A stretch of 64,000 bases of DNA from Mumia xiangluensis. GTDB lineage: Bacteria; Actinomycetota; Actinomycetes; Propionibacteriales; Nocardioidaceae. Below are positions 12,253-63,500 of the stretch, piece by piece. The stretch's first letter is position 1, and every line of letters begins with the position of its first letter. The translations under genes and the position numbers were made by a program. The DNA is taken from assembly GCF_010994095.1 (NCBI RefSeq), contig NZ_WJYO01000001.1:310001-374000 (forward strand). Direction: 5' to 3'. The notes under the pieces are model-generated. The model did no database searches. It was not told where the DNA came from and was given only the letters and a program-made list of their open reading frames with translations.

Positions 12253-12303
12253 CCCGCTGGTCGAGTAGTCCGAGCCCCCCAGGGCGAGGGCGTATCGAGA
12301 CCC
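12253..12303. repeat. REP-like element, type A, between beta and alpha carboxylase genes
   Basis: Fills most of the 73-bp gap between the two subunit genes. It begins CCCGCTGGTCGAGTAG and ends GGGCGTATCGAGACCC. The same two ends bracket the expanded repeat inside the atuA gene at 16671-16866. The spacer copy could form a hairpin and tune the ratio of the two subunits. Confidence 0.7.
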
Positions 12304-12304
12304 G

Positions 12305-13939
12305 TCACAGTCGGAACACCCCGTAGCCGCGGGCACCCTCGACGGGGGCAGTCGCGATCGCGCTCAGGCAGATGCCGAGCACGGTGCGGGTGTCGCGCGG
12401 GTCGATGACACCGTCGTCGTACAGGAGCCCTGACGTGAAGTACGCCAGCGACTGCTCCTCGATCTGCTTCTCGATGAAGGCGCGCATCTGCTTGTCGCCG
12501 TCCTCGTCGTACGGCTGCCCCTTCGCCTCGGCGGCTCCGCGCGCGACGATCGAGATGACGCCCGCCAGCTGCGCCGGCCCCATCACCGCGGACTTCGCGT
12601 TGGGCCAGCTGAACATGAAGCGCGGGTCGTACGCCCGTCCGCTCATGCCGTAGTGGCCGGCGCCGTACGACGCCCCGATGACGACCGAGATGTGAGGCAC
12701 CGTCGAGTTGGAGACGGCGTTGATCATCTGGGCGCCGTGCTTGATGATGCCGCCCTGCTCGTACTCGGCACCGACCATGTATCCGGTCGTGTTGTGCAGG
12801 AACAGCAGCGGCGTGTCGGTCTGGTTGGCGAGCTGGATGAACTGCGTCGCCTTCTGGGCCTCCTCGCTGAACAGCACGCCCTGCGCGTTGGCGAGGATGC
12901 CGATCGGGAAGCCGTGCACGGACGCGAACCCCGTGACGAGCGAGGAGCCGTACAACGGCTTGAACTCGTCGAAGCCCGATCCGCCCTCCGGAGCGCCGTC
13001 GACGATGCGCGCGATCACCTCACGCGGGTCGAACGGCACCTTGAGGTCCGACGGCACGAGGTCGAGCAGCTCGTCGACGTCGAAGGCCGGCTCCGCGTAC
13101 GAGGCAGCGGCGGACGGCCCCTGCTTGCGCCAGTTGAGGCGACGGACGATCTGGCGGCCGAGGCGGATCGCGTCGTACTCGTCGACGGCGAGGTAGTCCG
13201 CCAGTCCCGAGGTGCGCGCGTGCATCTCCGCACCGCCGAGCGACTCGTCGTCCGACTCCTCGCCGGTCGCCATCTTCACCAGCGGCGGACCTCCGAGGAA
13301 GACCTTGGCGCCCTCCTTCACCATGACGACGTAGTCGCTCATGCCGGGCACGTACGCCCCGCCTGCGGTCGAGTTGCCGAACACCAGCGCCACCGTCGGG
13401 ACCCGCGCCGCGCTCGAGCGCGTGATGTTGCGGAACGTCGCGCCGCCCGGGATGAAGATGTCCTTCTGCGTCGGCAGGTCGGCACCGCCGGACTCGACGA
13501 GGTTGATGGTGGGGAGCCGGTTCTCGGCGGCGATCTGCGCCGCGCGCAGGCCCTTCTTGACCGTGAGCGGGTTGCTCGACCCGCCCTTCACGGTCGGGTC
13601 GTTGGCGATGATCATGCACTCCACGCCCTCGACGACACCGATGCCGGTGACGATCGAGCCGCCGACCGGGAAGTCGGTCCCCCACGCGGCGAGCGTGGAC
13701 AGCTCAAGGAACGGCGCGCCCTCGTCGAGCAGCAGCTCGATGCGCTCACGGGCGAGCAGCTTGCCGCGCGCGTGGTGGCGGTCGATGTAGCGCTGTCCGC
13801 CGCCGGCGAGTGCCTTCGCGTGCTGCTCCGCCAGGTCGGCGATCTTCTCCAGCATCGCCTCGCGGTTGGTCGGCACAGTGCGATCGGACGGTGGTCCGTC
13901 GCCGGTGGTCGGGGCGGCGTCGGCCGCGGTCGTGGTCAT
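12305..13939 (-). CDS. Acyl-CoA carboxylase beta subunit (carboxyltransferase)
   Basis: 544 aa, the size of MccB/PccB-type carboxyltransferases. Two crotonase-like halves are visible: the first with GGSIVTGIGVVEGVEC and FGNSTAGGAYVPGMSDYVV, the second with HNTTGYMVGAEYEQGGIIKHG and GASYGAGHYGMSGRAYDP, both close to methylcrotonyl-/geranyl-CoA carboxylase signatures. It transfers carboxyl from biotin on the alpha subunit to the acyl-CoA. The open frame continues upstream of 13939, but the ATG there overlaps the previous stop by 4 bp (ATGA) and gives the family's normal N-terminus. The best functional guess is methylcrotonyl- or geranyl-CoA carboxylase. Confidence 0.94.
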   Translation of the reverse strand: MTTTAADAAPTTGDGPPSDRTVPTNREAMLEKIADLAEQHAKALAGGGQRYIDRHHARGKLLARERIELLLDEGAPFLELSTLAAWGTDFPVGGSIVTGIGVVEGVECMIIANDPTVKGGSSNPLTVKKGLRAAQIAAENRLPTINLVESGGADLPTQKDIFIPGGATFRNITRSSAARVPTVALVFGNSTAGGAYVPGMSDYVVMVKEGAKVFLGGPPLVKMATGEESDDESLGGAEMHARTSGLADYLAVDEYDAIRLGRQIVRRLNWRKQGPSAAASYAEPAFDVDELLDLVPSDLKVPFDPREVIARIVDGAPEGGSGFDEFKPLYGSSLVTGFASVHGFPIGILANAQGVLFSEEAQKATQFIQLANQTDTPLLFLHNTTGYMVGAEYEQGGIIKHGAQMINAVSNSTVPHISVVIGASYGAGHYGMSGRAYDPRFMFSWPNAKSAVMGPAQLAGVISIVARGAAEAKGQPYDEDGDKQMRAFIEKQIEEQSLAYFTSGLLYDDGVIDPRDTRTVLGICLSAIATAPVEGARGYGVFRL

Positions 13940-15075
13940 GCGGGTTCCTCCAAGGTGAGCTCGACCGGTTGGCCGAGGTAGCGGGAGAATCGGTCGGCCT
14001 GGTGCGCGAAGCGCTCGCGCAGGTCGGCCGGTGTGGGGACGAGCATGGTGAGCGTCAGGACCACCGGGTCGGCCTTGCGCTTCGGACGGGGCCACTTCCA
14101 GCCGCCCACGACCCGACCGTCGTCGGTCGCGAGGCCCCAGAAGAAGATGCCCTCCATCGGTTCGCGGACGAAGTCCTCGGACGCGTCGACGACCTGGCGG
14201 TTCTTGTACGAGATGAGGTACTCGTCGTACGGCGGGAGCAGGTGGCTGCCCAGCCCGTCGCCGCCGCTGGTTGAGCGAGCCTGCGAGTCGAAGCCACCCA
14301 CCCCCCAGTACGTCAGCCCCTCGCGTTCGAACGACGCCGCGCCGCACGCCTCGAAGCCGCGGCGCGCGTCGCCGACCGTGATGCCACCCCACCACGACAG
14401 GTCGTGGGGGGTCGCCGGGCCGTGGCCCAGCAGGTACCGTCCGGCGAGCCGCGCAACGGCCTCGTCGTGATCCAGCGGAGCAGACGCCGGCACACGGTCG
14501 TCGAACGCGGCGAACGTCTGCTGCTTGCCCTGGGGTGCGCCGCTGATCACGACCCGCTCGAGCTCGGCGCGGAGCGTGATGAAGCTGATCCGCTTGGCGG
14601 TGTCGACGCCGCGCTGCTCCAGCCGCTCGGCGAGATCCTTGCGGGTGAGGTGGTCGCCGTCCGCGAGAGCGTCGGCAACCGCGTCGAGGACGTTCGTCAG
14701 CTCGGCCGGGTCGTCGAGGCCGGTCGCCCGCCACGCCGACCCCATCGTGCGGATGACTCGCGGCCCGGTCAGCTCCAGCATCCAGCGCGCGTCGGCCGGG
14801 CGTACGAAGTGCCAGGTCGGACGGAGGACGTGCGTCCGCAGCAGCTCGCCGCTCCCGACGAGCGCACCCACGTCGGCCGCCGTCACCTCGCCGGCGCTGC
14901 GCTGGGCGAGCGCCCAGCCGGCGTCGACGTACTCCTGGGCCTGGACGGCACCCAGCAGGTCCACGACGTCGGGCGGGGTCGCGAACGGCTCACCGACGAG
15001 GCGCTGGCGCCGCATGCGCTCGGCGCGCACGTCGGCCCAGTCGCCGTCGGATGCCTCGATGTACGTCGCGACCAT
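13936..15075 (-). CDS. Winged-helix AlkZ-like (HTH_42) protein
   Basis: 379 aa, typical length for the winged-helix family that includes the DNA glycosylases AlkZ/YcaQ. N-terminal residues 40-50 read LLGAVQAQEY; Q45 and Q47 match the QxQ motif that AlkZ-type enzymes use to unhook alkylated bases. Further family segments are LRPTWHFVRPADARWMLEL and the C-terminal LLPPYDEYLISYKNR. The gene sits inside an acyl-CoA catabolic operon, coupled to the carboxylase beta gene by a 4-bp overlap, an unexpected place for DNA repair. A REP-like sequence is inserted in frame at about residues 261-271. It could repair damage from reactive intermediates, or have lost that role. Confidence 0.8.
   Translation of the reverse strand: MVATYIEASDGDWADVRAERMRRQRLVGEPFATPPDVVDLLGAVQAQEYVDAGWALAQRSAGEVTAADVGALVGSGELLRTHVLRPTWHFVRPADARWMLELTGPRVIRTMGSAWRATGLDDPAELTNVLDAVADALADGDHLTRKDLAERLEQRGVDTAKRISFITLRAELERVVISGAPQGKQQTFAAFDDRVPASAPLDHDEAVARLAGRYLLGHGPATPHDLSWWGGITVGDARRGFEACGAASFEREGLTYWGVGGFDSQARSTSGGDGLGSHLLPPYDEYLISYKNRQVVDASEDFVREPMEGIFFWGLATDDGRVVGGWKWPRPKRKADPVVLTLTMLVPTPADLRERFAHQADRFSRYLGQPVELTLEEPA
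14264..14293. repeat. REP-like element, type B, in frame inside the AlkZ-like gene
   Basis: The sequence reads CCGCTGGTTGAGCGAGC then a slightly shortened GCGAGTCGAAG, the reverse form of the element seen intact at 43287-43319 and 63321-63354. It encodes the stretch QARSTSGG, where the family normally passes directly from the sheet into the HLLPPYDEY motif. Confidence 0.7.
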
Positions 15076-15086
15076 CGCCGTCCTCC

Positions 15087-16286
15087 TCAGTAGCCCAGGA
15101 TCTTCGCGATGAGATCGTTCATGACCTCGGTGGCGCCGCCGCCGATGCCGAGGATGCGGGAGTCGCGGTAGTGGCGCTCGACCTCGGTCTCCCGCATGTA
15201 TCCCATGCCGCCGTGGACCTGCACGGCCTCGTCGACCACGAAGTCGCAGGCGGCGACGGCGTCGTTCTTGGCGATCGCGGCGTCGGCGGCGAGTCGCATC
15301 GGATCGACGCCGGTCGCGCCCGCGGAGAGCGCGGCGGCGCGCTCGACGACCTGCCGCGTGTACGCGCGTGCCGTGACCGTCGCTCGGTGCATCTCGACCA
15401 GCTTGTGCCGGATCACCTGGCGCGTCGCGAGCGGTCGTCCAAAGGTCTCGCGCTCCCGCGCGTAGGCGACGGTCAGGTCGAGCGAACGCTGCGCCGTCGC
15501 GTACGCCTGGACAGCGAGGCTCAGGCGCTCGTTGACGAACTGCTGCATGACGAGGACGAAGCCGCCGTTCTCCTCGCCCACCAGGTTCTGCACGGGCACG
15601 CGAGCCTCGGCGTACGACAGCTCGGCGGTGTCGGAACAGTGCCAGCCCATCTTGCGCAGCGGGTTCGCGACGGTGAACCCGGGCGTCCCCTTGTCGACGA
15701 CGAGCAGCGAGATGCCGCCGTAGCCGTCGCCGCCGGTGCGTACGGCCGTCGTGACGAAGTCGGCCCGCACTCCGGAGGTGATGAAGGTCTTGGCCCCGTC
15801 GACGACGTACGCGTCGCCGTCGCGCACGGCACGGGTCCGCAGGTTCGCGACGTCCGACCCGCCGCCGGGCTCGGTGACCCCGAGCGACCCGATCGTCTCC
15901 CCGGCGAGGGTCGGGCGGACGTACCGCTCGATCAACGACGCGCTCTGCTCGGTCGGGTTCGCGCGGTGTGCCGACACGATGTGCGGGAGCGCGATCCCGT
16001 GCGTGTAGAGGGCGGCGATCAGACCCGACGAGCCGCCGGCCTCGATCATCGCCTCGGTGACGACGGAGATGTCGAGGACGTCGCCGCCCTCGCCACCGAC
16101 GTCCTCGGGGAAACCGATCCCGAGCAGGCCCGCCGCGGCTGCCCGCTTGTGCAGGTCGCGCGGGATCTCGCCGTCGTCCTCCCAGCGCGGCAGGTTGTCG
16201 ACGACCTCGGAACGGACGAACCGCGTCACGGAGTCGCGAAGCGCGGCACGCTCCGGCGTGGACCAGGCGTCGTACGGCGTGGTCAT
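15087..16286 (-). CDS. Acyl-CoA dehydrogenase
   Basis: 399 aa. It carries SLGVTEPGGGSDVANLRT and DGAKTFITSG (about residues 130-165), the NERL helix with E253 at the isovaleryl/long-chain-type base position, and QVHGGMGYMRETEVERHYRD near the end. Start ATG 16286 overlaps the AtuA stop by 4 bp. It is one of two acyl-CoA dehydrogenases in this operon; the two are clearly different paralogues, so they probably act at different steps or chain lengths. Confidence 0.93.
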   Translation of the reverse strand: MTTPYDAWSTPERAALRDSVTRFVRSEVVDNLPRWEDDGEIPRDLHKRAAAAGLLGIGFPEDVGGEGGDVLDISVVTEAMIEAGGSSGLIAALYTHGIALPHIVSAHRANPTEQSASLIERYVRPTLAGETIGSLGVTEPGGGSDVANLRTRAVRDGDAYVVDGAKTFITSGVRADFVTTAVRTGGDGYGGISLLVVDKGTPGFTVANPLRKMGWHCSDTAELSYAEARVPVQNLVGEENGGFVLVMQQFVNERLSLAVQAYATAQRSLDLTVAYARERETFGRPLATRQVIRHKLVEMHRATVTARAYTRQVVERAAALSAGATGVDPMRLAADAAIAKNDAVAACDFVVDEAVQVHGGMGYMRETEVERHYRDSRILGIGGGATEVMNDLIAKILGY

Positions 16287-18226
16287 CGCGCCCCCTCGGC
16301 CGTTCCTGTGGGGAGGATCGAGGAGGGGACGGACGCGACGCGGGCGCGCAGCCACTCGCCGAGCGCCTTCGCCTGCGGGTCGAACCGTGTGGACGCTGCG
16401 ACCCCGTCGCCGAGGAAGCCGTGCAGCACGACGTTCACGGCGCGCAGGTTCGGGAGCGGGTGGATCTCGAGGTCCAGCTCGGCGGCCTCGGGCAGCAGCG
16501 CGCGTACGCCGGCGTCGTCGAGGAGGTCGACGAGCCACGCGTAGGCGGCCTCGGGGTCGGCGACGTCGCCGCGCACCCACACACCGACGTTGGCGTCGCC
16601 CCCCTTGTCGCCCGAGCGCGTGTGCACCACGCGTCCGAGCGGGACCGCTCGCGTGTCGACGCCGCCCTCGCCCGAGCCGGGCCCACCCCCGCTGGTCGAG
16701 TAGCCCGAGCCGGGCCCACCCCCGCTGGTCGAGTAGCCCGAAGCCGGCCCGCCCCCGCTGGCCGAGGAGCCCGAACCGGGCGCCCCCCCGCTGGTCGAGT
16801 CGCCCGAGCCGGGCCCACCCCCGCTGGTCGAGTAGCCCGAGCCCCTGGGCGAGGGCGTATCGAGACCCCCACCCGACGCCGCGGTCGCGGTCGCGGTCGT
16901 GGTCGGCGCAGCGATCTCGATGCGGGTGCCGTCCGCGAGGACGACGGTGTGCGGGACCAGCTCCTGCGCGACGTAGCCGGGCGTGTACACCCCGTACGGT
17001 GTCCCGGCCGCCGGCGGGCGGGTGACGGTGAAGCCGGGGTACGAGGCGAGAGCGACCTCAACCGCCGCCGACGAGAACGCACGACCGACCGGGTCCGGAG
17101 ACGAGTCCTTGACGTGGCAACGCAGCAAGGCGGTGGCCCGCGCCTGGGTGTCGGGGTCCGGCACGTCCGTCCGGTCGAGCTGCCATTCGACCTCGGCCGG
17201 CACCCCGGCCGGGGAGTCGGCGAGGGCGTCTTCGATCTGGGCGCGCACGAGCGCGGCCTTCGCCTCGATGTCGAGCCCGGTGAGGACGAGCTCGACGCTG
17301 TTGCGGAAGCCGCCGAAGGCGTTGAGGGCGACCTTCGTCGTCGCCGGGGGCGCGGACCCGCGCACGCCGGAGACGGCCACCCGGTCGTTGCCTGCCTGCT
17401 CGAGACTGACCGTGTCGAGGTGCGCGACGACGTCGGGTCCGGCGTAGGCGGGGCCGGCGATCTCGTACACGAGCTGGGCCGTGACCGTGTCGACGGTGAC
17501 GACGCCGCCGGTGCCCTCGTGCTTGGTGATGACGGAGCTGCCGTCTGCCGCGATCTCGGCGATCGGGAATCCGGGGTGCAGCATGAGCTTGGGGTCGAGC
17601 TCGGCGAACCCGGCGTAGTTGCCACCGGTCGCCTGGGTCCCGCACTCGATCACGTGCCCGGCGACCACGGCGCCCGCGAGCCGGTCGAAGTCCTCGCGAC
17701 CCCACCCGTGGGCATGGATGGCCGGCCCGACGACGACCGACGCATCGGTTACGCGCCCGGTGACGACGATGTCGGCACCCGCGTCGAGAGCGGCGGCGAT
17801 ACCGAAGGCGCCGAGGTAGGCGTTGGCCGTCAGGGGCTGCTGACCGGCGTGGCCGACGAGGCCGAGCTCGTCGGCACGCGTACGGAGGTCGTCGCCCTCG
17901 ACATGGGCGACGACGACGTCGACGCCCTGCTCGGCAGCGATCTCGCGAAGCTTCGCGGCCAGCCCTGCGGGGTTGAGTCCGCCGGCGTTGGTCACGATGC
18001 GGACGCCGCGTTCCTTCGCGAAGCCCATGCACTCGGCCATCTGCTTGACGAACGTCTTCGCGTAGCCGAGCGAGGGGTCCTTCAGCCGGTCGCGGCCCAG
18101 GATCAGCATCGTGAGCTCGGCGAGGTAGTCACCGGTGAGGTAGTCGAGCTCGCCCTCGGTGAGCATCTCGCGCATCGCGGCGAGACGGTCGCCGTAGAAG
18201 CCGGAGCAGTTGCCGATGCGGATCAC
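16283..18226 (-). CDS. atuA: AtuA-family protein (DUF1446 plus AtuA-like C-terminal domain)
   Basis: 647 aa, slightly longer than the usual 590-600. GTG start at 18226 overlaps the previous stop by 4 bp; the N-terminus MIRIGNCSGFYGDRL is the DUF1446 start, followed by TNAGGLNPAGLAAKL and GRVTDASVVVGPAIH (substrate-cleft signatures). The C-terminal domain (about 530-647) begins VVHTRSGDKGGDANVGVWV. Between them (about residues 453-518) is a Gly/Ser-rich linker of 11-residue repeats made by a tandemly amplified REP-like element. AtuA is required for acyclic terpene (citronellol/geraniol) use in Pseudomonas; its exact reaction is unsettled. Here it sits with a biotin-dependent carboxylase, two dehydrogenases and a hydratase. 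Confidence 0.9.
   Translation of the reverse strand: MIRIGNCSGFYGDRLAAMREMLTEGELDYLTGDYLAELTMLILGRDRLKDPSLGYAKTFVKQMAECMGFAKERGVRIVTNAGGLNPAGLAAKLREIAAEQGVDVVVAHVEGDDLRTRADELGLVGHAGQQPLTANAYLGAFGIAAALDAGADIVVTGRVTDASVVVGPAIHAHGWGREDFDRLAGAVVAGHVIECGTQATGGNYAGFAELDPKLMLHPGFPIAEIAADGSSVITKHEGTGGVVTVDTVTAQLVYEIAGPAYAGPDVVAHLDTVSLEQAGNDRVAVSGVRGSAPPATTKVALNAFGGFRNSVELVLTGLDIEAKAALVRAQIEDALADSPAGVPAEVEWQLDRTDVPDPDTQARATALLRCHVKDSSPDPVGRAFSSAAVEVALASYPGFTVTRPPAAGTPYGVYTPGYVAQELVPHTVVLADGTRIEIAAPTTTATATAASGGGLDTPSPRGSGYSTSGGGPGSGDSTSGGAPGSGSSASGGGPASGYSTSGGGPGSGYSTSGGGPGSGEGGVDTRAVPLGRVVHTRSGDKGGDANVGVWVRGDVADPEAAYAWLVDLLDDAGVRALLPEAAELDLEIHPLPNLRAVNVVLHGFLGDGVAASTRFDPQAKALGEWLRARVASVPSSILPTGTAEGAR
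16671..16866. repeat. Five 33-bp tandem repeats plus REP tail inside atuA
   Basis: Units start at 16671, 16704, 16737, 16770 and 16803, each 33 bp, starting CCCGAGCCGGGCCC and ending GCTGGTCGAGTAG. Units 1, 2 and 5 are identical; 3 and 4 carry substitutions. The array ends in the type A REP tail (to GTATCGAGACC at 16866). Each unit encodes an 11-aa block of the type GSGYSTSGGGP, so copy number can change without frame loss. Confidence 0.92.
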
Positions 18227-19710: not shown

Positions 19711-19716
19711 CCCTGC

Positions 19717-19754
19717 ATCATCACCCCGTAACTAACAAACAGTCAACCCTGTTT
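19717..19754 (-). promoter_or_regulatory. Promoter and TetR operator of the atu-type operon
   Basis: Minus sense: -35 TTGACT (19741-19746), 18-nt spacer, -10 GATGAT (19717-19722), then 6 nt to the GTG. The perfect inverted repeat AAACAG-N6-CTGTTT (19737-19754) is centred on the -35, an ideal repressor position for the TetR encoded first in the operon. Confidence 0.6.
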
Positions 19755-19825
19755 CTTTCTTCGTCGGCCCTTCCCTCGCGCTAATACGCTCGTACGACCC
19801 AGGGCGCGGCCCCTACGCTGTGCCG

Positions 19826-21306: not shown

Positions 21307-21367
21307 CGGCGAGGCGCAGGCTCCACCCGCGGCCGGGCCTGCCCCGGCGTCCACTACGGTGGTCGCC

Positions 21368-22354: not shown

Positions 22355-22480
22355 CGGCCGTGGACCTGACCCGGCCGCGTTCCCGTGACCGAAACCGGCG
22401 TACGACCTGCGGGTGAGCGGTTGCGTGGTTAGGCTCCCCAGAGCCGGTATCGGGGACCGGTACGAGGGAGCGGGGGCAGG

Positions 22481-24820: not shown

Positions 24821-24823
24821 GCG

Positions 24824-25336: not shown

Positions 25337-25351
25337 GCCTCCATCGAAGCA

Positions 25352-29133: not shown

Positions 29134-29175
29134 TCCCGACGAGACCACGCTCGCACCTCCCCGCGAAGCGTGACC

Positions 29176-29219
29176 CGTGGTGCCCGCGCAGCGACCCCTA
29201 CCGCGGCGCGGGCACCACG
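29176..29219. promoter_or_regulatory. Perfect 14-bp stem hairpin between cebE and cebF
   Basis: CGTGGTGCCCGCGC (29176-29189) and GCGCGGGCACCACG (29206-29219) are perfect inverted repeats around a 16-nt loop, 42 nt after the cebE stop. CACCACG repeats follow. It may stop or process the transcript so that the binding protein is made in excess over the permeases, as known for malE-malF-type spacers. Confidence 0.75.
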
Positions 29220-29266
29220 CACCACGCACCACATCCCACCGTCCGACCTCGTCCCCAGGAGCCGGC

Positions 29267-43235: not shown

Positions 43236-43286
43236 GTCTGATCAAACGCACGACTGCGAGGGCTCCGCAAGCCGGAGAGGGTCGGG

Positions 43287-43319
43287 TTTTCGACTCGCTT
43301 CGCTCGCTCAACCAGCGGG
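43287..43319. repeat. REP-like element, type B (intact form)
   Basis: TTTTCGACTCGC, then TTCGCTCGCTCAACC, then AGCGGG, in the gap between the ankyrin lipoprotein stop and the permease start. The inner part GCTCGC-type sequence pairs with GCGAGC-type sequence elsewhere, giving weak hairpin potential. Reference copy for the in-gene elements at 14264 and 45569. Confidence 0.75.
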
Positions 43320-45443: not shown

Positions 45444-47669
45444 TCAGACGAACTTCTCGTCCTTCGACGCCTTCTCGAGCAGCAGCGCCGGCGGGGAGAA
45501 GCGCTCGCCGTACGCCGTCGCGAGCTCCTGCGCCCGCTCCGTGAACGCCTTCACGCCGATGCGGGCCGCCTGTCCTGAGCGAGCGGAGCGAGTCGAAGGG
45601 TCAGCGGCCTCGTACCCGTTGATGTACTGCAGGGCACCACCGAAGACCGGCGGGAAGCCGATGCCGAAGATCGAGCCGATGTTGGCGTCGGCGACCGTGC
45701 GGAGCACGCCCTCCTCGAGGCAGCGGACCGTCTCGATGGCCATGATGAACGTGTAGCGCTCCTGCATGTCCTCCCACGGGATCTCTGCACCCTCCTTGCG
45801 GAACTGCGAGAGGCCCGACCACAGGTGCTTCTTGGCGTCGGCGGGGTATTCGTAGAACCCGGCCCCGGCGGCCTTGCCCTTGCGGCCCTGGTCGACGAGC
45901 GTGTTGATGACGTCCATCGCGGGGCTGTCCGGGAAGGCCTTGCCCGCGCCCTCGGCAGCTGCCTTGGCCTCGCCGTTGATCTTCTGCGGGAGCGTCAGCG
46001 TGACCTCGTCGATCATCGCCAGCGGCGGAGCCGGGAAGCCCTTGGTCGTGGCGGCGCGCTCGATCGAGACCGGGTCGAGGCCCTCGGCGAGCATCTCGGC
46101 GCCCTCCATGGTGAGGGTGCCGAAGACCCGGCTGGTGAAGAAGCCGCGGCTGTCGTTGACGACGATCGGGGTCTTCTTGATCTGCTTGACGTAGTCGAGC
46201 GAGCGGGCGATCGCCTCATCCGAGGTCTTCTCGCCCACGATGATCTCGACCAGCGGCATCTTGTCGACCGGCGAGAAGAAGTGGATCCCGATGAAGTCCT
46301 CGGGACGCTTGACGCCGTCGGCGAGGATCGTGATCGGCAGCGTCGACGTGTTGGAGCCGAGCAGCGCGTCGGAGTTCACGATCGGCTCGAGGTCGCCGAA
46401 GACCTGCTTCTTGAGGTCGACCGACTCGAAGACCGCCTCGATGACGAAGTCGCAGCCCGCGAGATCGGCGTAGTCGGCCGTCGGGTGGATGCGGGCGAGG
46501 ATCTCGTCACGCTTCTCCGCCGTCAGGCGACCCTTCTCGACCTGCTTGTCGAGGAGGTTCGTCGAGTAGGACTTGCCCTTCTCGGCGGCCTCGATCGAGA
46601 TGTCCTTGAGGACGACGTCGATGCCTGCGCGCGCCGAGACGTACGCGACGCCGGCGCCCATCATGCCCGCACCGAGGATCGCCACCTTGGAGGCCTTCGT
46701 CTTCTCGATGCCCGCCGGCCGCGAACCGCCGGCGTTGATCGCACCGAGGTCGAAGAAGAACGCCTGCGTCATGTTCTTGAACTGCTGACCCGTGACGAGG
46801 TCGACGAAGTAGCGCGACTCGATGCGGGACGCGGTGTCGAAGTCGACCTGAGCACCCTCGACGGCCGCGGCCATGATGTTGCGCGGGGCCTTGTAGGGGG
46901 CACCCTTGGTCTGCTTGCGCAGGGTGGCGGGGAACGCCGGCAGGAACTGCGCGAGCTTCGGGGTGGAGGGGGTGCCACCGGGCATCCGGTAGCCCTTCTG
47001 GTCCCACGGCTGGGTGAAGGCCTCGGCGTCGTCCTTGTGGGCGAGGATCCAGGCCTTGGCAGCCGGGACCAGCTCGTCCTGCGTCGCGACGAGCTCGTCG
47101 ACGAGCCCCGTGGCGAGCGCCTTGGCGGGCTTCATGCGCGGCCCCTGCAGGAGGACCTCCATGAGCGCCTTCTGCAGGCCGAACATGCGGACCGTGCGGG
47201 TGACGCCGCCGCCGGCGGGGAGCAGGCCGAGCGTGACCTCGGGAAGGCCGATCTCGTATCCGCCCTCGACGGCGATGCGGTGGTGGGTCGCGAGCGCGAT
47301 CTCGAGCCCGCCGCCGAGCGCGGCACCGTTGATCGCGGCGACGACCGGCTTGCCGAGCGTCTCGAGGCGGCGCATCGTCGCCTTCATGGACTCGACGCCC
47401 TCGAAGACCTGCGGCGAGTCGGCCGGGGTCATCTGCGTCATCAGCTTGAGGTCGCCGCCGGCGAAGAACGTGCTCTTCGCACTGGTGACCACGACGCCGA
47501 CGACGTCGTCGCCCTCGGCCACGAGGCGCTCGACGGCCGCCGCCATCGAGGCCTGGTAGGCCTCGTTCATCGTGTTGGCGCTCTGGTTGGGATCGTCGAG
47601 GACAAGGGTGACGATGCCGTCCTCGCCGCGCTCGTAACGGACGGCGTCCGCGGTTGCGTTCTCAGTCAT
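45444..47669 (-). CDS. fadB: Fatty-acid oxidation multifunctional protein (enoyl-CoA hydratase/3-hydroxyacyl-CoA dehydrogenase)
   Basis: 741 aa. N-terminal crotonase domain (about 1-200: NGAALGGGLEIALATHHRIA, LPEVTLGLLPAGGGVTRTV with the two catalytic glutamates), linker, then NAD-binding 3-hydroxyacyl-CoA dehydrogenase starting VAILGAGMMGAGVAYVSA (about 330) with GIHFFSPVDKMPLVEI and the C-terminal domain. It does steps 2 and 3 of beta-oxidation and pairs with fadA upstream (39-bp gap). Near residue 690 a REP-like element is inserted in frame, giving DPSTRSARSGQ, just before the GVKAFTERAQEL end. Confidence 0.94.
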   Translation of the reverse strand: MTENATADAVRYERGEDGIVTLVLDDPNQSANTMNEAYQASMAAAVERLVAEGDDVVGVVVTSAKSTFFAGGDLKLMTQMTPADSPQVFEGVESMKATMRRLETLGKPVVAAINGAALGGGLEIALATHHRIAVEGGYEIGLPEVTLGLLPAGGGVTRTVRMFGLQKALMEVLLQGPRMKPAKALATGLVDELVATQDELVPAAKAWILAHKDDAEAFTQPWDQKGYRMPGGTPSTPKLAQFLPAFPATLRKQTKGAPYKAPRNIMAAAVEGAQVDFDTASRIESRYFVDLVTGQQFKNMTQAFFFDLGAINAGGSRPAGIEKTKASKVAILGAGMMGAGVAYVSARAGIDVVLKDISIEAAEKGKSYSTNLLDKQVEKGRLTAEKRDEILARIHPTADYADLAGCDFVIEAVFESVDLKKQVFGDLEPIVNSDALLGSNTSTLPITILADGVKRPEDFIGIHFFSPVDKMPLVEIIVGEKTSDEAIARSLDYVKQIKKTPIVVNDSRGFFTSRVFGTLTMEGAEMLAEGLDPVSIERAATTKGFPAPPLAMIDEVTLTLPQKINGEAKAAAEGAGKAFPDSPAMDVINTLVDQGRKGKAAGAGFYEYPADAKKHLWSGLSQFRKEGAEIPWEDMQERYTFIMAIETVRCLEEGVLRTVADANIGSIFGIGFPPVFGGALQYINGYEAADPSTRSARSGQAARIGVKAFTERAQELATAYGERFSPPALLLEKASKDEKFV
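45569..45600. repeat. REP-like element, type B, in frame inside fadB
   Basis: CCTGTCCTGAGCGAGC then GGAGCGAGTCGAAGGG; the GAGCGAGCGGAGCGAGTCGAA core equals the complementary form of the intergenic type B element. It adds about 10 residues in the C-terminal domain of FadB, near a surface loop by position. Confidence 0.8.
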
Positions 47670-53700: not shown

Positions 53701-56700
53701 GCCGACATCCTCATCGTCGACGAGCCGGTGAACGTCGACATCTCCAAGACCTTCGACCAGGACGTCCTCGGCATCCCCCCGGTGGGCACACCCCAGGCGG
53801 AGTACCCGCTGATCAGCGCCAGCATCACGGCGTCGAACGACAGCATCGCCAAGCTGCGCGAGCTGCGCGTCGACGACCCCAGCGCGAGCCCCGAGCTACA
53901 ACCTGAGCCCTTCCGGACGCTCAACCTCTACGCGATCGGAGAGATCACGACGCCGGCCGGTGCCACCGGGACCGAGGTCGTCCTCTACCGCAACTGGAGC
54001 ACGACGCCGACGTCGTACACGGTGGCGGCTGCCCAGGCGTTCACCCCCGCCGAGCTCGCCGACGTCACCGGGGTCGCCGTGGTGCACACCGGACTCATCG
54101 AGTCGCAGGCGACCACCGACGTCGAGCTCGTCTTCCAGCTCCGCGCGACGAACCGCGTGACCGAAGCGCCACCCACGCCGACCTCGACGGCCATCCCGAA
54201 CGTCGCGACGGCGACCGGGAGCAACCCGCACGACACCGTCACCGACCAGGCGACGGACGGGTTCACGCTCGCCGAGCCGACGTACGGCGTGCTCCCCGGC
54301 AAGACCATCGCCCCGGCCGAGCGCTACGAGAACGAGACGAACGCGTACGTCGTGACGTTGAGCGGACAGCCGACGGGGACGGTGCGCACCGAGGAGATGA
54401 CACTCACCGACACGAGCGAGACGTTCTGGAACGCGTTCGACTTCGGCGCGTTCACCCCGGTCGTGCTGCAGTTCCCGATCCGGCAGCTCAAGGTCGACGC
54501 GCTCGTCGGAGTGACGTACGAGCTCGACGGGTCCGGTGCGCCCGTGGCGCTGTGCAACGGGGTGACCGACCTGACGGCGTGCTGGGTCGAGGGCGAGTGG
54601 GCGGCGTCCGCGGTCGGCGGAGCGATCACGCCCACACTGCCTGACGGCGTCGCCGCCGCGGACGTCCGCGGCGTGCGGGTCTCGGCGCGTAACGCAACGG
54701 GCACCCAGTGGGAGCGACCCAACAACCCGCGGCTCCTCATCAGGTTCGCCGCGACGCAGCGCGACACGCTGCGGATCGGACCGGACGGCGGCGCCGACAC
54801 CCCGGTCCCCTCCACCCGGCCCGGCATGGAGAAGGCGCCCGGTGAAACCGTCCAGGGGCAGACCACCGACACGGTCGACGTGCATGCCGAGGGCACCTGG
54901 CTCGATCCGGCGGGGACGGTCTGGACGGCCGACAGCGACGCGACCGCGACGACGCTGCTGAGGCATCTCCCCAACGAGATCAGCGTGGTGAAGGCTCCGG
55001 GCAACGGGAGCGACACCGACCCCCCGTCGTACGTCCCCGGGCAGTCGATCCCGTACGTCATGACCTTCACCAACACCGGGCAGTGGCCGATCACCGGGCT
55101 GGAGCTCTCCGACCAGATCGCGACCGACGCCCAGGGGTCGCTGCTCGTCGAGCCCCGGGACGCCTCCGGCGAACCCGTGCCGAACTACTCCTTCACCCTC
55201 GTCGGCGCCGACGGGACCCCGAAGTCGACCGCGGGCTTCTCGGCGAGCCTGAACGAGCAGACGGGGTTGCTCAGCATCACCGTGCCCGACGGCTTCGTCC
55301 TCGAGCCTGGCGACGTCCTCACCGTGCGGGCCCCCTTGCAGTTCAGGCCCGGGCTGCCGCCGGGGACCTCGGTCGGCAACAGCGTCACCGCGACCAGCGA
55401 CCGGCCGTTCGACACCTGCCAGTACACGACGAACCAGACGGTCTCCGACACCAGCGAGGTCGTCGACGACTGCACGGCGACCACGCACACGACTCCACGG
55501 GCCGCGAGCCCGCTCGTGGTCCAGAAGTCGGTGAAGGGCGTCGGAGCGGGCGTCGCGGGGGCCACCGAGGGCGACCCGAACTACGACGACCTCGGTCGCC
55601 TCGTCACCGGGACGGGGGCCCCGCAGACCTGCGAGAGCCCGAACGGCCAGAACGGCTACTACCGCAGCCCGTGCGTGCCGATCACCCGGCCGGGCGGGAT
55701 CGAGCGCTGGCAGTACTCGGCGCAGAACGCCGGCAACGTCCCGGCGCACGTCATCGCCGGTATCGACAGCTTCCCGCGCTACGGCGACGTCGGCGTGATC
55801 ACCGGCACGCCGCGCGGGTCGGAGTGGGAGACCACGATCGTCGGCAACCCCACCAGCAACCTTGGCGACGTGGACCAGCTCGCGAAGTCCGTCACCTGGT
55901 ACTACCTGGAGGGCACCCCGTCCTCGGAGTGCAACGCGGCCGACATCCGCAACGAGACGACGCCCGGGGGACTTCCGACCACGGACCCCTGCTACGACGA
56001 GGTCAACAACCGGGAGTGGATCGAGGTCGCGGACGACACCACGGAGGCCGACTTCGCGGGCGCCGAGGCCGTCAAGTTCGTGATCGAGTACGCCGAGGAC
56101 GGCACGGGTCTCGCACCCGGCAGCTCCATCCACCTCACGCTCGACACGCGGACCGCGTGGGCGGTGGACAACGGCGTCTCCACGGAGTTCCCGATCGCCT
56201 GGAACTCGGTCGCGTCGGGCACCCAGGGAGTCACGGGCAACCAGACGATCGTCAGTCCGATCGTCGAGCCGACCCGCGTCGGCGTCGCCACCGCGATCGG
56301 CAAGCTGGCGCTGCAGAAGCAGGTGGAGGGCGCGGACCTGCCCGGCGTCACGTACCCGTCCGCGTACACGTTCCGGGTGCAGTGCACCTCCGGTCCGGAG
56401 ACGGTGCCGCTGGTCGACTCCGAGGGCAACGACGCCAGCCTCGTGACGCTGCAGGCCGACGGCACGCTCGTGACGTACAACAGCGGCCAGACGATCAACC
56501 TCCCGCTGTACGCCGACTGCACGCTGACCGAGGAGCCGATCGCCCAGGGCGCCACCGTCACGTACGACCCTGCCGGTGCCGACGGAACCTCGGGCCCGGT
56601 CACGGCGCTCAACGACCAGACCGACCGTGACGACGTCGTCGACCCGGCGTTCCCCGAGACCGTCGAGCTCGCGCAGATCACCGCGACCAACACGTACGCC

Positions 56701-59187: not shown

Positions 59188-59194
59188 GCGACGC

Positions 59195-59614
59195 TCAGGC
59201 AGCGCCCATCGGCAGGATCACGACGGGGCACGGCGCCGTGCGCGCGAGAACGTCGCTGACCGAGCCGAGCGCGTTGTGCTTGATCGAGGACGTCCCGTGG
59301 CTGCCGACGACGATCATCTGCGCGCCGGCGGCGACCGAGAGCAGGACGTCGACGGGCAGGCCCTCGTGCACGCCGACGGTCACCTCGGTGTCGCCGTCGT
59401 GGAGCGCGGCAGCCTCGGCCGTCTCGGCCGCGATGCGCTCACCCTCGGAGATCGTGCCGACGGAGGACTTCTGGGGATCGACGGTGACGACGACCTGCAC
59501 CGCTGCTCCGCGCAGGTCGGCCTCGGTCATGGCCCAGTGGAGGGCACGGCGTGCTCCGGCGGATCCGTCGCTGCCGACCACGATCGTCCCGGTCTTCTGA
59601 GGTGAGTCGCTCAT
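59195..59614 (-). CDS. Universal stress protein (single domain)
   Basis: 139 aa, one USP domain: TIVVGSDGSAGARRALHWA (about residues 9-27) and nucleotide loop IVVGSHGTSSIKHNALGSVSDVLARTAPCPVVI. Separate from the MarR/MFS unit, to which it is divergent (96-bp gap). Convergent with the surface protein gene. Confidence 0.94.
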   Translation of the reverse strand: MSDSPQKTGTIVVGSDGSAGARRALHWAMTEADLRGAAVQVVVTVDPQKSSVGTISEGERIAAETAEAAALHDGDTEVTVGVHEGLPVDVLLSVAAGAQMIVVGSHGTSSIKHNALGSVSDVLARTAPCPVVILPMGAA

Positions 59615-59710
59615 GTCGCCATCCTGTCGGGTCCCAGCCGGGCAGGCGACCTCGGAGGCGCCAAGGACCTCGACCTGGAGAGATGTATAAGCAAGTGATA
59701 TAACGTCCTT

Positions 59711-60217
59711 ATGCAATCTGCGCCTGCGCGTGACCTCGCCGTCGCGCTCGAACGCCTCACCAGCCTGCTCCGCCACCTCGCCCCCTCCGGGCTCTCTCTC
59801 ACGGCGGTCGGCACCCTGGCGACGCTCGAACGCTCCGGACCCACGCGCCTGACCCGGCTCGCCACGGTCGAGGGCGTCACCCAGCCCGCAATGACGCAGC
59901 TGGTGACCCGCCTCGAGAAGACCGGCCTCGTACGCCGCGAGTCCGATCCCGAGGACGGTCGAGCCGTCCTCGTCGCGATCACCGACGACGGCTCGGCGTG
60001 GTTGGCTCACCGCCGGACCCTCCGAGCCGAGCTCCTCGGCGAGCTCCTTGCAGACCTCTCACCCGCCGACCAGCAGGCGCTGGCCGACGCACGCCCGGCG
60101 TTCGAGGCCCTCACGCGCCTCGTCGTGCCCTCCCTCGAGGGCCCGTCCTCCACCCGTCCCTCTCAGGCTCTGCCATCTCAGGCTCTGCCCTCTCACGAAA
60201 GAAGGAAGCGTTCGTGA
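59711..60217 (+). CDS. MarR-family transcriptional regulator
   Basis: 168 aa. Winged helix with LTRLATVEGVTQPAMTQLVTRLEKTGLVRRESDPEDGR (in pieces; residues about 45-85), the classic MarR DxR wing. The C-terminus is a Ser/Pro-rich tail with a PSQAL repeat. TATAAC (59699-59704) ends 6 nt before the ATG, a leaderless pattern, with TGGAGA as a possible -35 (59676-59681). It overlaps the MFS-USP gene by 4 bp, so it likely represses that efflux pump. Confidence 0.92.
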   Translation: MQSAPARDLAVALERLTSLLRHLAPSGLSLTAVGTLATLERSGPTRLTRLATVEGVTQPAMTQLVTRLEKTGLVRRESDPEDGRAVLVAITDDGSAWLAHRRTLRAELLGELLADLSPADQQALADARPAFEALTRLVVPSLEGPSSTRPSQALPSQALPSHERRKRS

Positions 60218-61950
60218 CGTCCCACTCCGCGACCGCGGTCGCGAGTCCGTTCAAGCAGCCCAAGGCGGTGTGGGCGGTCGCGTTCGCCTGCGTCGTGTCC
60301 TTCATGGGCATCGGCCTGGTCGACCCGATCCTCCCGGTCATCGCCGAAGACCTGCAGGCGACACCGAGCCAGGTGTCGCTGCTCTTCACCAGCTATCTCG
60401 TGGTGACGGCGGTCGCCATGCTCTTCACCGGCTGGGTCTCGAGCCGGATCGGCGCCAAGAAGACCCTCATCGCGGGTCTCGTGATCGTCGTCGTCTTCGC
60501 TGCTCTTGCCGGTTCGTCCGATACCGTCGGCCAGATCGTCGGGTTCCGAGCAGGCTGGGGCGTCGGCAACGCACTCTTCATCGCGACGTCGCTCGCGGTG
60601 ATCGTGGCGTCCGCGTCCGGCGGGTTCGCCGGCGCGATCATCCTGTACGAAGCGGCGCTCGGCCTCGGCATCGCCGTCGGCCCGCTGCTCGGCGGACTGC
60701 TCGGCGAGATCAGCTGGAAGGGCCCGTTCTACGGCGTCTCGGCGCTGATGGCGGTCGCGCTGATCGCGACGATCGTGCTCGTGGAGCCGACCCCGAAGCC
60801 CGCCGAGAAGACCTCCCTCGTCGCTCCGCTCAAGGCGCTTCGGCACCGCGGGCTCCTCACGATCTCGCTCACCGCCCTCTGCTACAACTGGGCGTTCTTC
60901 ACGGTCCTCGGCTACACCCCGTACCCGATGGAGCTCGGAGCGATCGAGCTCGGCTTCGTCTTCTTCGGCTGGGGGCTGCTCGTCGCCGCGTTCTCGGTCG
61001 TCGGCGCACCTCGGCTGCAGGGCCGGTTCGGGATCGCCCGCACGCTGTATGCCAACCTCGCCGTCTTCGCGGTGCTGGTGCTGGCGATCGGCCTGTTCGT
61101 CGAGAACCGCACCGTGCTCATCGTCGCGGTGATCGCCACCGGCGTCGTGATCGGCGTCAACAACACGGTGACCACGCAGGCGGTCATGACCATCTCGCCC
61201 GTCGAGCGGCCGGTGGCATCGGCAGCGTACGGGTTCGTCCGGTTCATCGGCGGAGGCCTCGCGCCGTTCTTCGCGGGGAAGCTGGTGGAGCGCTTCGACA
61301 TGCACATGCCGTTCTACGTCGCGACCGGGTTCCTCCTCGTCGGCATCGCCATCCTCGCGACCGCGCACCGGCACCTCGCCGAGGCCGAGTCGGCGCAGGT
61401 CGAGGTCGAGGTCGTGGAGGTCGCCGCGCCTGTCTCCCCGCCGGTTGCCTCGGCGCTCACCCACGACCACGTCGTCGACCAGCACGCGGAGCTCGCCGCC
61501 GAGACCGACGGCGTGCTCGTCGCCGCCGTCGACGCGACGCCGCTCGCTACGGAGGTGACGGCGGCCGCTGGACGGCTCGCCCAGCGGTACGGGCGTACGG
61601 TCCACCTCGTCCACGCGCAGGAGTCCGCGATCACGCCGGACGCCGCGGCCGACACCGAGAACCTCACCGCAGCCGAGGCCGTCGTCCGGGCGCACCTCGA
61701 ACAGCTCGCGGCGCTCGGCGTCCCCGCCGTCGGCCACGTCCTGCGGCACGCGCCGGGGCACGGAGCAGCAGGACGACTCGTCGCCGAGTACGCGAACGAG
61801 CTGCAGGCGCGGGCGCTCGTGATCGGTCCCCCGCGGACCACCGGCGACCTCGGCGCGCTCGTCGAGGAGTCGGCGAGCCAGGAGCTGCTCCGCCACGCCC
61901 GCACCAGCCTCGTGGTCGTGAACCACCAGCAGGTCCCGACCGCGGTCTGA
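60214..61950 (+). CDS. MFS efflux transporter with C-terminal universal stress domain
   Basis: 578 aa. Residues about 1-395: 12-helix major facilitator (FMGIGLVDPILPVIAEDLQATPSQVSLLFTSY, then SRIGAKKTLIAG loop 2-3 motif). Residues about 415-578: cytosolic USP-like domain (from about 430: DGVLVAAVDATPLATEVTAAA to ALVIGPPRTTGDLGALVEESASQELLRHARTSLVVV). GTG start overlaps the MarR stop by 4 bp; GAAGGAAG is the ribosome-binding site. The fused domain could tie transport to ATP or stress state. Substrate probably a hydrophobic drug. Confidence 0.93.
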   Translation: MTSHSATAVASPFKQPKAVWAVAFACVVSFMGIGLVDPILPVIAEDLQATPSQVSLLFTSYLVVTAVAMLFTGWVSSRIGAKKTLIAGLVIVVVFAALAGSSDTVGQIVGFRAGWGVGNALFIATSLAVIVASASGGFAGAIILYEAALGLGIAVGPLLGGLLGEISWKGPFYGVSALMAVALIATIVLVEPTPKPAEKTSLVAPLKALRHRGLLTISLTALCYNWAFFTVLGYTPYPMELGAIELGFVFFGWGLLVAAFSVVGAPRLQGRFGIARTLYANLAVFAVLVLAIGLFVENRTVLIVAVIATGVVIGVNNTVTTQAVMTISPVERPVASAAYGFVRFIGGGLAPFFAGKLVERFDMHMPFYVATGFLLVGIAILATAHRHLAEAESAQVEVEVVEVAAPVSPPVASALTHDHVVDQHAELAAETDGVLVAAVDATPLATEVTAAAGRLAQRYGRTVHLVHAQESAITPDAAADTENLTAAEAVVRAHLEQLAALGVPAVGHVLRHAPGHGAAGRLVAEYANELQARALVIGPPRTTGDLGALVEESASQELLRHARTSLVVVNHQQVPTAV

Positions 61951-62011
61951 CCGCCCGCGGTCAGCAGGCGCCGCCGCCACCGGCCGCGCCCCCGGCACCG
62001 CCCACCCGGCG

Positions 62012-62153
62012 CGGCGCCTCGGCGTTTGCCACGCTCGCACCGCAAATGCCGGCCCGGCGCCTCGGCGTTTGCCACGCTCGCACCGCAAATGCCGCCCGTG
62101 CACCGCAGATTCAAGGTGCATGAGCGGTATTTGCGGTGCCGGCGTGGCAAACG
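62012..62153. repeat. Direct and inverted repeat block between convergent genes
   Basis: Two 40-bp direct copies (62012-62051 and 62055-62094) begin CGGCGCCTCGGCGTTTGCC. A third copy, inverted and with about 3 mismatches in 29 bp, lies at 62125-62153, so copy 2 and it can form a long hairpin. It lies between the MFS-USP gene (ends 61950) and the acyl-CoA dehydrogenase (minus-strand stop at 62161), where it may terminate both. Confidence 0.85.
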
Positions 62154-62160
62154 GAGCAGG

Positions 62161-63303
62161 TCAGATGCCCATCGTGCGGCCGATGATCTCCTTCATGATC
62201 TCGGTCGTGCCGCCGTAGATCGTCTGGATGCGGGTGTCCGCGTACGCCCTGGAGATCGGGTACTCGGACATGAACCCGTATCCGCCGAACAGCTGCAGGC
62301 ACTTGTCGACCGTCTTCTTCTGAAGCTCGGTCGTCCACCACTTGCCCATCGCGGCATCGGACACCGTCAACGTCCCGGCGTTGAGCTCCATGATCGAGCG
62401 GTCCACGAAGACCTGGGCGATCTGCGCCTCGGTCTCGAGCTCGGCGAGCACGAAGCGGCTGTTCTGGAACGACCCGATCGGACGCCCGAACGCCTTGCGC
62501 TCCTTGACGTACTCCAGCGTCATGTCGATCACCGCGCGGCACGCGGCAGCGGCGGTGACGGAGATCGTGAGCCGCTCCTGCGGCAGCTTCTCCATGAGGT
62601 AGATGAAGCCGTTGCCCTCCTCGCCGAGGAGGTTCTCCTTGGGAACCTTGACGTCGGTGAAGAACAGCTCGGCGGTGTCCTGCGCCTTCAGGCCGAGCTT
62701 GTCGAGGTTGCGTCCACGCTCGAAGCCCTCCATGCCGCGCTCGAGGACGATCAGCGAGACGCCGCGCGCACCTGCCGACGGATCGGTCTTCACCGCGACG
62801 ATCACCAGGTCGGCGAGGATGCCGTTGGAGATGAACGTCTTCTGACCGTTCACCAGGTAGTGGTCACCCTGATCGATCGCCGTCGTCGCGATCGACTGCA
62901 GGTCGGAGCCGGTGCCGGGCTCGGTCATCGCGATCGCGGTGATCGTCTCGCCCGTGCAGAACTTCGGCAGCCAGCGCGCCTTCTGCTCGTCGTTCGCGTA
63001 CGACAGCAGGTAGCCCGACACCAGGTCGTTGTGCAGCGCGAAGCCGACCCCGGTCGCGGCCGCGTGCGCGAGCTCCTCCTCGATGATCGCGTTGAACCGG
63101 AAGTCGCTGACGCCACCGCCGCCGTACTCCTCCGGCATCATGAAGCCGAGGAACCCCTGCCTGCCCGCGGCGAGCCACATGTCGCGCGAGACGATCCCGT
63201 CCTTCTCCCACTGGTCGTGGTGCGGCTTGATCTCCTTCTCGACGAACGTCCGGAACGCGTCGCGGAAGGCGTCGTGGTCCTCGGTGAAGATGTTGCGCTG
63301 CAT
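62161..63303 (-). CDS. Acyl-CoA dehydrogenase
   Basis: 380 aa. IAMTEPGTGSDLQSIATTA and NGQKTFISNG (about residues 122-160), then EKLPQERL with E243 at the isovaleryl/long-chain-type base position (the C-terminal motif is YGGTTEIMKE, not YEGT), and LQLFGGYGFMSEYPISRAYAD. First step of acyl-CoA oxidation. Next to a CaiB-type racemase, so possibly branched chains. The ATG is preceded by AGGAGCACC. Confidence 0.94.
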   Translation of the reverse strand: MQRNIFTEDHDAFRDAFRTFVEKEIKPHHDQWEKDGIVSRDMWLAAGRQGFLGFMMPEEYGGGGVSDFRFNAIIEEELAHAAATGVGFALHNDLVSGYLLSYANDEQKARWLPKFCTGETITAIAMTEPGTGSDLQSIATTAIDQGDHYLVNGQKTFISNGILADLVIVAVKTDPSAGARGVSLIVLERGMEGFERGRNLDKLGLKAQDTAELFFTDVKVPKENLLGEEGNGFIYLMEKLPQERLTISVTAAAACRAVIDMTLEYVKERKAFGRPIGSFQNSRFVLAELETEAQIAQVFVDRSIMELNAGTLTVSDAAMGKWWTTELQKKTVDKCLQLFGGYGFMSEYPISRAYADTRIQTIYGGTTEIMKEIIGRTMGI

Positions 63304-63320
63304 GGTGCTCCTTGGTGGTG

Positions 63321-63500
63321 GGTTTCGACTCGCTCCGCTCGCTCAACCAGCGGGTGTCTCGCGTGCTCAGCCAGCGGGTTTCGACTCGCTCCGCTCGCTC
63401 AACCAGCGGGTGTCTCGCGTGCTCAACCAGCGGGTGACGGGCTGCTCAACCAGCGGGTGTCGCGTGCTCAACCAGCGGGTGTCGCGTGCTCAACCGGCGG
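63321..63500. repeat. Degenerate REP-like array, about seven units, overlapping a stop codon
   Basis: Two intact type B elements (63321-63354 and 63379-63410) are followed by short CTCAACCAGCGGG units at roughly 23-bp spacing; seven core copies in total. The last unit supplies the stop codon TGA of the alpha-methylacyl-CoA racemase gene (63490). Confidence 0.9.

What the first reader, a model, noticed from the sequence alone, without database searches (positions are those of the whole stretch)
12253..63500. A REP-like family that invades genes without breaking them
Related short elements occur between genes (12253, 43287, 63321) and in frame within genes (14264, 16671, 45569), and one supplies a stop codon (63490). 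The spread into at least three enzyme genes without frame loss implies selection or an insertion mechanism that favours in-frame events. No transposase is visible in the window.
Basis: partly seen in the sequence, partly recalled or inferred. Interest (0 to 1): 0.75.

Follow-up and report, generated by a model that had tools for sequence, protein, structure and literature searches.

The report
Mobile DNA repeats in protein linkers
A soil-type bacterium carries hundreds of copies of a very short DNA repeat, some of them sitting in flexible parts of its enzymes without breaking them, although the enzyme best known for moving such repeats is missing, so what moves them is open.

Summary
The elements belong to a high-copy family: 357 matches against 5 in a reversed control in the genome, 130 strict copies against 0 in 1.2 Mb. 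The host is a Mumia or close to it. The FadJ copy is an exact 33-nt, 11-residue insertion, empty in 5 of 5 congeners.

A frame-favouring mechanism is not supported. Spacings of array units are multiples of three in 41 of 41 cases inside genes but in 36 of 121 outside, so frame is kept by selection.

The known mover of REPs, a Y1/RAYT transposase, is absent here and from 147 of 149 family genomes; the two that have one are element-poor.

Beyond ordinary REPs: arrays of three or more units end 3' in an intact copy in 55 of 55 cases; the same genes are occupied in two species (9 shared, about 0.5 expected), often by another subfamily; one subfamily burst only in this lineage. In 14 of 17 scanned host genes the element lies outside Pfam domains.

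A new variant of REP/RPE-type elements; the mobilising activity is unknown.

The parts
12254..12302 (+). full element, subfamily B variant, between genes
13936..15075 (-). host gene: AlkZ-like DNA glycosylase (PF06224)
14264..14295 (+). full element A1 inside the AlkZ-like gene, antisense to it, read as GGFDSQARSTSGG; the same loop holds other subfamilies in congeners
16283..18226 (-). host gene: AtuA family protein (PF07287) with AtuA ferredoxin-like domain (PF23544)
16670..16867 (+). row of 33-nt 3'-truncated B units ending in one full B element (16826-16867), in the linker between the two AtuA domains
43286..43318 (-). full element A, just 3' of the ankyrin-repeat gene 43326-44630; site empty in congener G064
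45444..47669 (-). host gene: FadJ/FadB, enoyl-CoA hydratase / 3-hydroxyacyl-CoA dehydrogenase
45567..45599 (+). 33-nt insertion (subfamily X core 45573-45600), read on the minus strand as PSTRSARSGQA; absent in 5 of 5 congeners
63321..63499 (-). array: two full A elements (63321-63348, 63377-63404) and truncated units, spacing 22-32 nt
63490..64000 (-). 3' part of a gene (continues to 64665) whose stop TGA (63490-63492) lies in an element half; C-terminal tail differs from congener G064

Best explanation
These are non-autonomous REP-type elements: a 26-42 nt imperfect palindrome with conserved ends GGTYGAG...TCGARACC, mostly preceded by CCGCT. They disperse by copying through a trans-acting activity that is not a Y1/RAYT transposase and is not identified here (inferred). 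Beside an existing copy, tandem rows of 3'-truncated units build up on its 5' side, most simply because a polymerase stalled in the palindrome slips back (inferred from the strict polarity). Array growth ignores reading frame outside genes (shown); inside genes only triplet changes are seen, mostly in linkers, tails and loops, which is best read as purifying selection (pattern shown, cause inferred). The active subfamily changes between species, and the same genes are re-occupied or overwritten by the current one (pattern shown; fresh insertion or conversion not told apart).
For: Copy number far above control. Coupled end bases, C-G 85 and T-A 50 of 135 full copies, no mixed pair. Exact 33-nt insertion against five empty congeners. 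Frame test 41 of 41 in genes against 36 of 121 outside; congener 11 of 11 against 15 of 37. Array polarity 39 of 39 own and 16 of 16 congener arrays of three or more units. Shared occupied genes 9 where about 0.5 is expected. Subfamily A ends (GAAACC) 33 of 91 here, 2 of 75 in G064; intergenic sites with A/A1 only are the same subfamily in G064 in 0 of 12, sites with C in 8 of 11. Y1 absent here and from 147 of 149 family genomes.
Against: No mover was found, so active copying by an enzyme is unproved. Folding energies of five consensus elements are no better than shuffles (z -0.2 to -1.5). No clear target-site duplication at the FadJ site. The coupled end bases follow subfamilies and may reflect few events; G064 has 2 unmatched pairs of 76. 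Of 16 mapped genic sites 6 are empty in G064, and 6 of the 10 occupied differ in subfamily, one of these (271673) between two near types. In-gene frame is partly built into gene calling: a gene broken by an insertion would not be called as one gene. Mutation by drift of old copies was not modelled.
Confidence: 0.6

Rival explanations
1. Spread without any dedicated enzyme: hairpin-prone short DNA is copied or captured during replication or break repair (template switching, end joining) and homogenised by conversion between copies.
For: No mover found. Tandem truncated units with similar spacers look like slippage. Ku is present in this genome and in 144 of 149 family genomes. Different subfamilies sit at the same place, in the two window-gene and PadR loci with nearly the same junction.
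Against: Ends are conserved across the family while the inside differs between genomes, which suits recognition in trans; a subfamily-specific burst suits active copying. Ku is nearly universal, so its presence tests nothing.
Confidence: 0.3
2. Classic REP/REPIN elements moved by a RAYT (TnpA-REP) that was lost recently or sits elsewhere.
For: Size, copy number and 3'-end preference resemble REPs.
Against: PF01797 is absent from the genome and from 147 of 149 family genomes; the two positives (G003, G010) have only 18 and 15 pattern matches, while the five richest (621, 352, 329, 287, 282) have none. The genome is 98.6% complete, so a gap is possible but would not explain the family.
Confidence: 0.05
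3. An insertion mechanism that prefers in-frame events.
For: All in-gene array spacings found are multiples of three (41 of 41). No own gene pair in 815 kb looked like halves of one congener gene.
Against: Outside genes there is no triplet preference (36 of 121), and subfamily core lengths are 26, 27, 28, 35 and 42 nt.
Confidence: 0.02
4. In-gene copies are favoured because the encoded linker peptides are useful.
For: The same genes carry elements in two species; DnaX and PabB-C-A linkers carry different ones in several congeners.
Against: Other congeners have no full copy there, and peptide, frame and orientation differ between species, so no particular peptide is conserved; tolerance explains this as well.
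Confidence: 0.02
5. Chance GC-rich similarity.
For: Single half-sites at up to two mismatches are at chance level (1493 against 1707 in the control).
Against: Full elements: 130 against 0 and 357 against 5; an exact insertion against congeners.
Confidence: 0.01

Closest known systems
REPs / REPINs with RAYT (TnpA-REP), GTAG families (Di Nocera et al. 2013, PMC3733652: outline, sections 6, 14, 15 and passages seen; Corneloup et al. 2021, PMC8266576: abstract and outline seen)
   Same: 20-40 nt imperfect palindromes in high copy, many subfamilies, most often near 3' ends of genes, some copies inside genes or supplying stop codons
   Different: No Y1 transposase in the genome or in 147 of 149 family genomes; no GTAG tag at the end (B-type has GAGTAG inside); head-to-tail rows of truncated units with one fixed polarity
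CGTC-tagged REPs (PMC3733652, sections 6 and 14 seen)
   Same: No dedicated transposase known; copies inside genes
   Different: No CGTC tag; that paper calls CGTC elements mostly head-to-head dimers with head-to-tail dimers negligible, whereas rows here are head-to-tail; 'Actinobacteria' does not occur in its main text
Rickettsia palindromic elements (RPE; review PMC10969869, passages seen)
   Same: In-frame insertion of palindromic repeats into many unrelated protein genes
   Different: RPEs are given there as about 150 bp in Rickettsia; here 26-42 nt cores in a 4.6 Mb actinobacterium, and subfamily change at one site can be followed between species

Membership tests
REP (RAYT-associated, GTAG) | short palindromic repeat in high copy | tested here: met
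   357 matches in the genome, 26-42 nt cores; pairing of the ends supported by coupled bases, but folds are not better than shuffles
REP (RAYT-associated, GTAG) | preferentially between genes, near 3' ends | tested here: met
   per kb: convergent 2.31, tandem 0.95, divergent 0.44, genes 0.021
REP (RAYT-associated, GTAG) | RAYT / Y1 transposase in the genome or close relatives | tested here: not met
   PF01797: 0 in own genome, 2 of 149 in the family, both element-poor
REP (RAYT-associated, GTAG) | GTAG tag beside the stem | tested here: not met
   the five bases before the core are CCGCT in 93 of 135 full matches
CGTC REP | CGTC (or TGTC/CCTC) tag at one end | tested here: not met
   same count; the rare X type reads CGTCC or TGTCC before TGAG, which resembles the tag but was not tested further
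CGTC REP | mainly head-to-head dimers | tested here: not met
   same-orientation half-site within 50 nt on the 5' side at 78 of 135 full copies, opposite-orientation 7 (5') and 20 (3'); congener G064 is more mixed: 26 against 23 and 26 of 75
RPE | in-frame insertion into several unrelated genes | tested here: met
   23 strict copies in 18 predicted genes in 1.2 Mb; exact insertion shown for FadJ
RPE | length of about 150 bp, Rickettsia | tested here: not met
   26-42 nt cores, host Mumia or near it
MITE | terminal inverted repeats, target-site duplication, cognate DDE transposase | tested here: inconclusive
   short inverted ends present; no clear duplication at the FadJ site; DDE transposases were not searched

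The most novel reading that the evidence does not exclude
An unknown, non-Y1 copying system in Nocardioidaceae recognises CCGCTGGTYGAG...TCGARACC ends and keeps overwriting the same protein linkers with whichever subfamily is active, so that linkers of proteins such as DnaX, the PabB-C-A fusion and the AlkZ-like glycosylase are rewritten by a mobile element species by species. The strict array polarity (truncated units 5', intact unit 3') would be the fingerprint of its copying step.
Probability: 0.4. Interest if true: 0.78.

Novelty: new variant of a known kind. Interest (0 to 1): 0.6.

Why it matters
It separates REP-like spread from RAYTs in a large group of free-living bacteria, so the mover can be looked for. 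It answers the frame question with an internal control: the same units vary freely outside genes and change only in triplets inside. And it shows protein linkers as places of repeated turnover of a mobile element between species, a concrete source of linker evolution.

Tried and rejected
Orientation rule: two loci (L008, L013) suggested that elements point along the upstream gene. The counts did not bear this out (loose scan: tandem 28 sense and 32 antisense, inside genes 32 and 24; strict scan inside genes 11 and 12).

Movers considered: DUF222/HNH proteins occur in 147 of 149 family genomes with no visible relation to element number (for example G068 with 352 pattern matches and 2 hits, G008 with 13 matches and 14 hits; hits per genome were limited by a scoring cap, and no correlation was computed). 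Reverse transcriptase is absent here and from G061 and G068, two of the richest genomes, so it is not required. Ku is nearly universal and gives no test. DDE and other transposases and tyrosine or serine recombinases were not searched.

Plasmids and phages: window 63310-63500 had no match in either collection; no other element was tried there.

Methods replaced: the loose scan mixed in chance matches and gave way. Half-sites at two mismatches are at chance level (79 of 96 in genes, 55 of 175 outside), so the test was repeated at one mismatch (7 own spacings partly overlapping genes were set aside). In one search, 49 of 55 clusters mapped to G064. In one search the FadJ site fell out through the gap filter; 16 genic and 31 intergenic sites and 239 of 331 control gaps were scored; subfamily labels there allow two mismatches and near types can be confused. 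In one search a few of the 20 and 13 element-bearing genes may be chance matches (three mismatches allowed); the shared pair at 853242 looks like one. The 3 C-A pairs were artefacts of taking an outer start; one search corrects them. The 80 named loci were used only to name the genus.
Full report
What is there. The window lies in a 4,622,342-base genome in 9 contigs. Its FadJ protein is 91% and 90% identical (best segment) to those of Mumia sp. zg.B17 and Mumia quercus, the other 78 loci kept being at 77% or less, so the host is a Mumia or very near one. The short repeats at 12253, 14264, 16671, 43287, 45569 and 63321-63490 were read directly. They belong to one family: a core with ends GGTYGAG and TCGARACC, preceded by CCGCT in 93 of 135 full matches in 1.2 Mb. 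The end pattern (with TCGARRCC) has 357 matches in the genome against 5 for the reversed pattern. A strict consensus scan of C1:100001-1300000 gave 130 non-overlapping copies and none in reversed sequence. Subfamilies are A (28 nt core), A1 (27), C (26), B (42), D (35), a few others, and a sister type X with CCTGAG...TCGAAGG. The fourth base from each end is coupled: C-G 85, T-A 50, mixed 0 (congener G064 C-G 72, T-A 2, T-G 2). This argues for pairing of the ends, though it partly follows subfamilies, and the predicted folds of five consensus elements are no better than shuffles.

Where copies sit. With genes called by my own script (1097 genes in 1.2 Mb), strict copies occur at 2.31 per kb between convergent genes, 0.95 in tandem gaps, 0.44 in divergent gaps and 0.021 in genes. 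Of 130 copies, 23 lie inside 18 predicted genes; three of these are 6-20 nt from a predicted start and may be upstream of the real one. Seventeen of the 18 host genes were scanned against Pfam (119578-121662, across two stretches, was not). By the residue positions the element lies outside every Pfam-matched stretch in 14 of 17: between two domains (E2 lipoyl/E3-binding, AtuA, TPP enzyme, PabB-C-A fusion), behind domain III of DnaX, behind the last match of FadJ, at C-terminal tails (PadR, HAD), before the first domain (NarJ-like, PucR, biotin carboxylase, GH1, pirin), or in an unmatched part (FhuF-like). It lies within the matched domain in CobN (four copies), the AlkZ-like protein and a UvrD-like helicase.

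Are they insertions? FadJ carries PSTRSARSGQA, 33 nt, between AAD and ARIGV, where all five congeners run straight on (DNA alignment with two of them). In the closest solved relative, a FadB chain, this region aligns with gaps.

Frame: selection, not mechanism. The spacing between neighbouring half-sites (CGCTGGTYGAG, up to 1 mismatch, 15-45 nt apart) is a multiple of three in 41 of 41 cases in 15 genes, and in 36 of 121 cases outside genes, where 21, 22, 23, 24 and 25 nt are all common. The congener gives 11 of 11 in 8 genes and 15 of 37 outside. The total inserted length must be a multiple of three for a gene to be called whole, but single units need not be; that each is points to selection at each growth step. 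This tests array growth; for first insertion it is an inference. In the 815 kb compared, the script printed no pair of adjacent own genes matching one congener gene. Subfamily A (33 nt with CCGCT) lies in genes in 10 of 49 copies and C (31 nt) in 3 of 49, not significant (p 0.07).

Array polarity. Arrays are rows of 3'-truncated units, with spacers that by eye are similar within an array and differ between arrays, ending in a full element on the 3' side (29 arrays of four or more units). For arrays of three or more units the 3'-most unit is full in 39 of 39 own and 16 of 16 congener arrays, the 5'-most in 5 and 2; for two or more units the 3'-most is full in 53 of 60 and 25 of 27; the reversed control gave 8 such arrays, none with a full unit. 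Some arrays hold several full units. Local duplication of spacer plus 5' half, as from a polymerase that stalls in the palindrome and slips back, would give this; that is inference.

Turnover. G064 is a congener whose length equals that of the published Mumia sp. Pv 4-285 (abstract and passages seen). It is largely collinear with the region compared. Copies ending GAAACC are 33 of 91 full matches here (815 kb) and 2 of 75 there (800 kb), while the commonest C core is frequent in both (19 and 29). At own-occupied sites G064 holds some element or half in 10 of 16 genic and 13 of 31 intergenic sites, against 25 of 239 own-empty control gaps. At the genic sites 6 differ in subfamily (one, 271673, between near types), 2 are the same, 2 are halves only and 6 are empty. 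Intergenic sites with A/A1 only: 8 empty, 3 half, 1 different, 0 same; with C: 8 same, 3 empty; others: 7 empty, 1 different. Among 570 ortholog pairs, 20 own and 13 congener genes carry elements and 9 are shared (about 0.5 expected, Fisher p 7e-12; one shared pair may be a chance match). In the AlkZ-like loop own has A1, G064 a C-like type plus a half, G021 three tandem B-type copies and G049 a degenerate one. In the DnaX linker own and G064 have C, G057 has another core read in another frame, G038 and G049 have no full copy, and G021 aligned only up to the linker. In the PabB-C-A linker own and G064 have antisense elements, G049 and G021 sense ones, G038 and G057 no full copy. So both overwriting and independent gain are likely. 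Half-site orientation agrees between own and G064 at 6 of the 7 genic sites where both could be scored (counting majority strand). G021 shows many copies near its own B variant (capped lists).

The mover. PF01797 (Y1_Tnp; that it covers RAYT and IS200/IS605 transposases is recalled) is absent here and from 147 of 149 family genomes; the two positives hold 18 and 15 pattern matches, while the richest five hold 621, 352, 329, 287 and 282. All 149 have at least one match; the pattern also has chance matches in coding sequence, so low counts mean little. DUF222, Ku and reverse transcriptase do not explain the spread. In 198 genomes of the phylum the pattern with the GCTGG prefix exceeds two copies only here (210) and in G156 (7), which has a shorter variant that the pattern mostly misses; only about 16 of the 198 are of the same class.

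Known work. Di Nocera et al. 2013 (PMC3733652; outline, sections 6, 14, 15 and passages) describe GTAG and CGTC REPs, their place downstream of genes, copies inside genes, and for CGTC the lack of a transposase; 'Actinobacteria' does not occur in its main text. RPEs in Rickettsia are the precedent for in-frame insertion (review PMC10969869, passages). RepRanger (PMC12306157; abstract, outline and passages) lists palindrome counts for three Actinomycetota and does not contain 'Nocardioid'. Six element or variant strings gave no paper, and the listings showed none on this family; most subscription papers are not in that library.

Verdict. The family works like REP/RPE elements but fails the RAYT and tag criteria, so it is filed as a new variant of a known kind.

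Noticed in passing
window 50869-59187 (+): A 2772-residue predicted protein with eight matches to DUF5979 (PF19407), the source of the other direct repeats in this part of the window.
   Followed up: partly
window 62006-62091: A 43-nt unit repeated twice in tandem, 98% identical, just 3' of the predicted MFS/Usp gene 60214-61950.
   Followed up: no
window 29168-29227: Inverted repeat with 26-nt arms, 85% complementary, 8 nt apart.
   Followed up: no
L070 and L073 (AtuA linker of G064 and G021): The AtuA linker holds other, GCGAG-rich repeats in two congeners instead of this family, so the linker may take up repeats of several kinds.
   Followed up: no
in-gene sense copies, C1:100001-1300000: Of 11 sense copies inside genes, 10 are read in one frame (PLVERAKRVET or PLVEARSDRD type); the 11th lies 18 nt from a predicted start. 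By inspection another sense frame is also free of stops.
   Followed up: no
   Followed up: no
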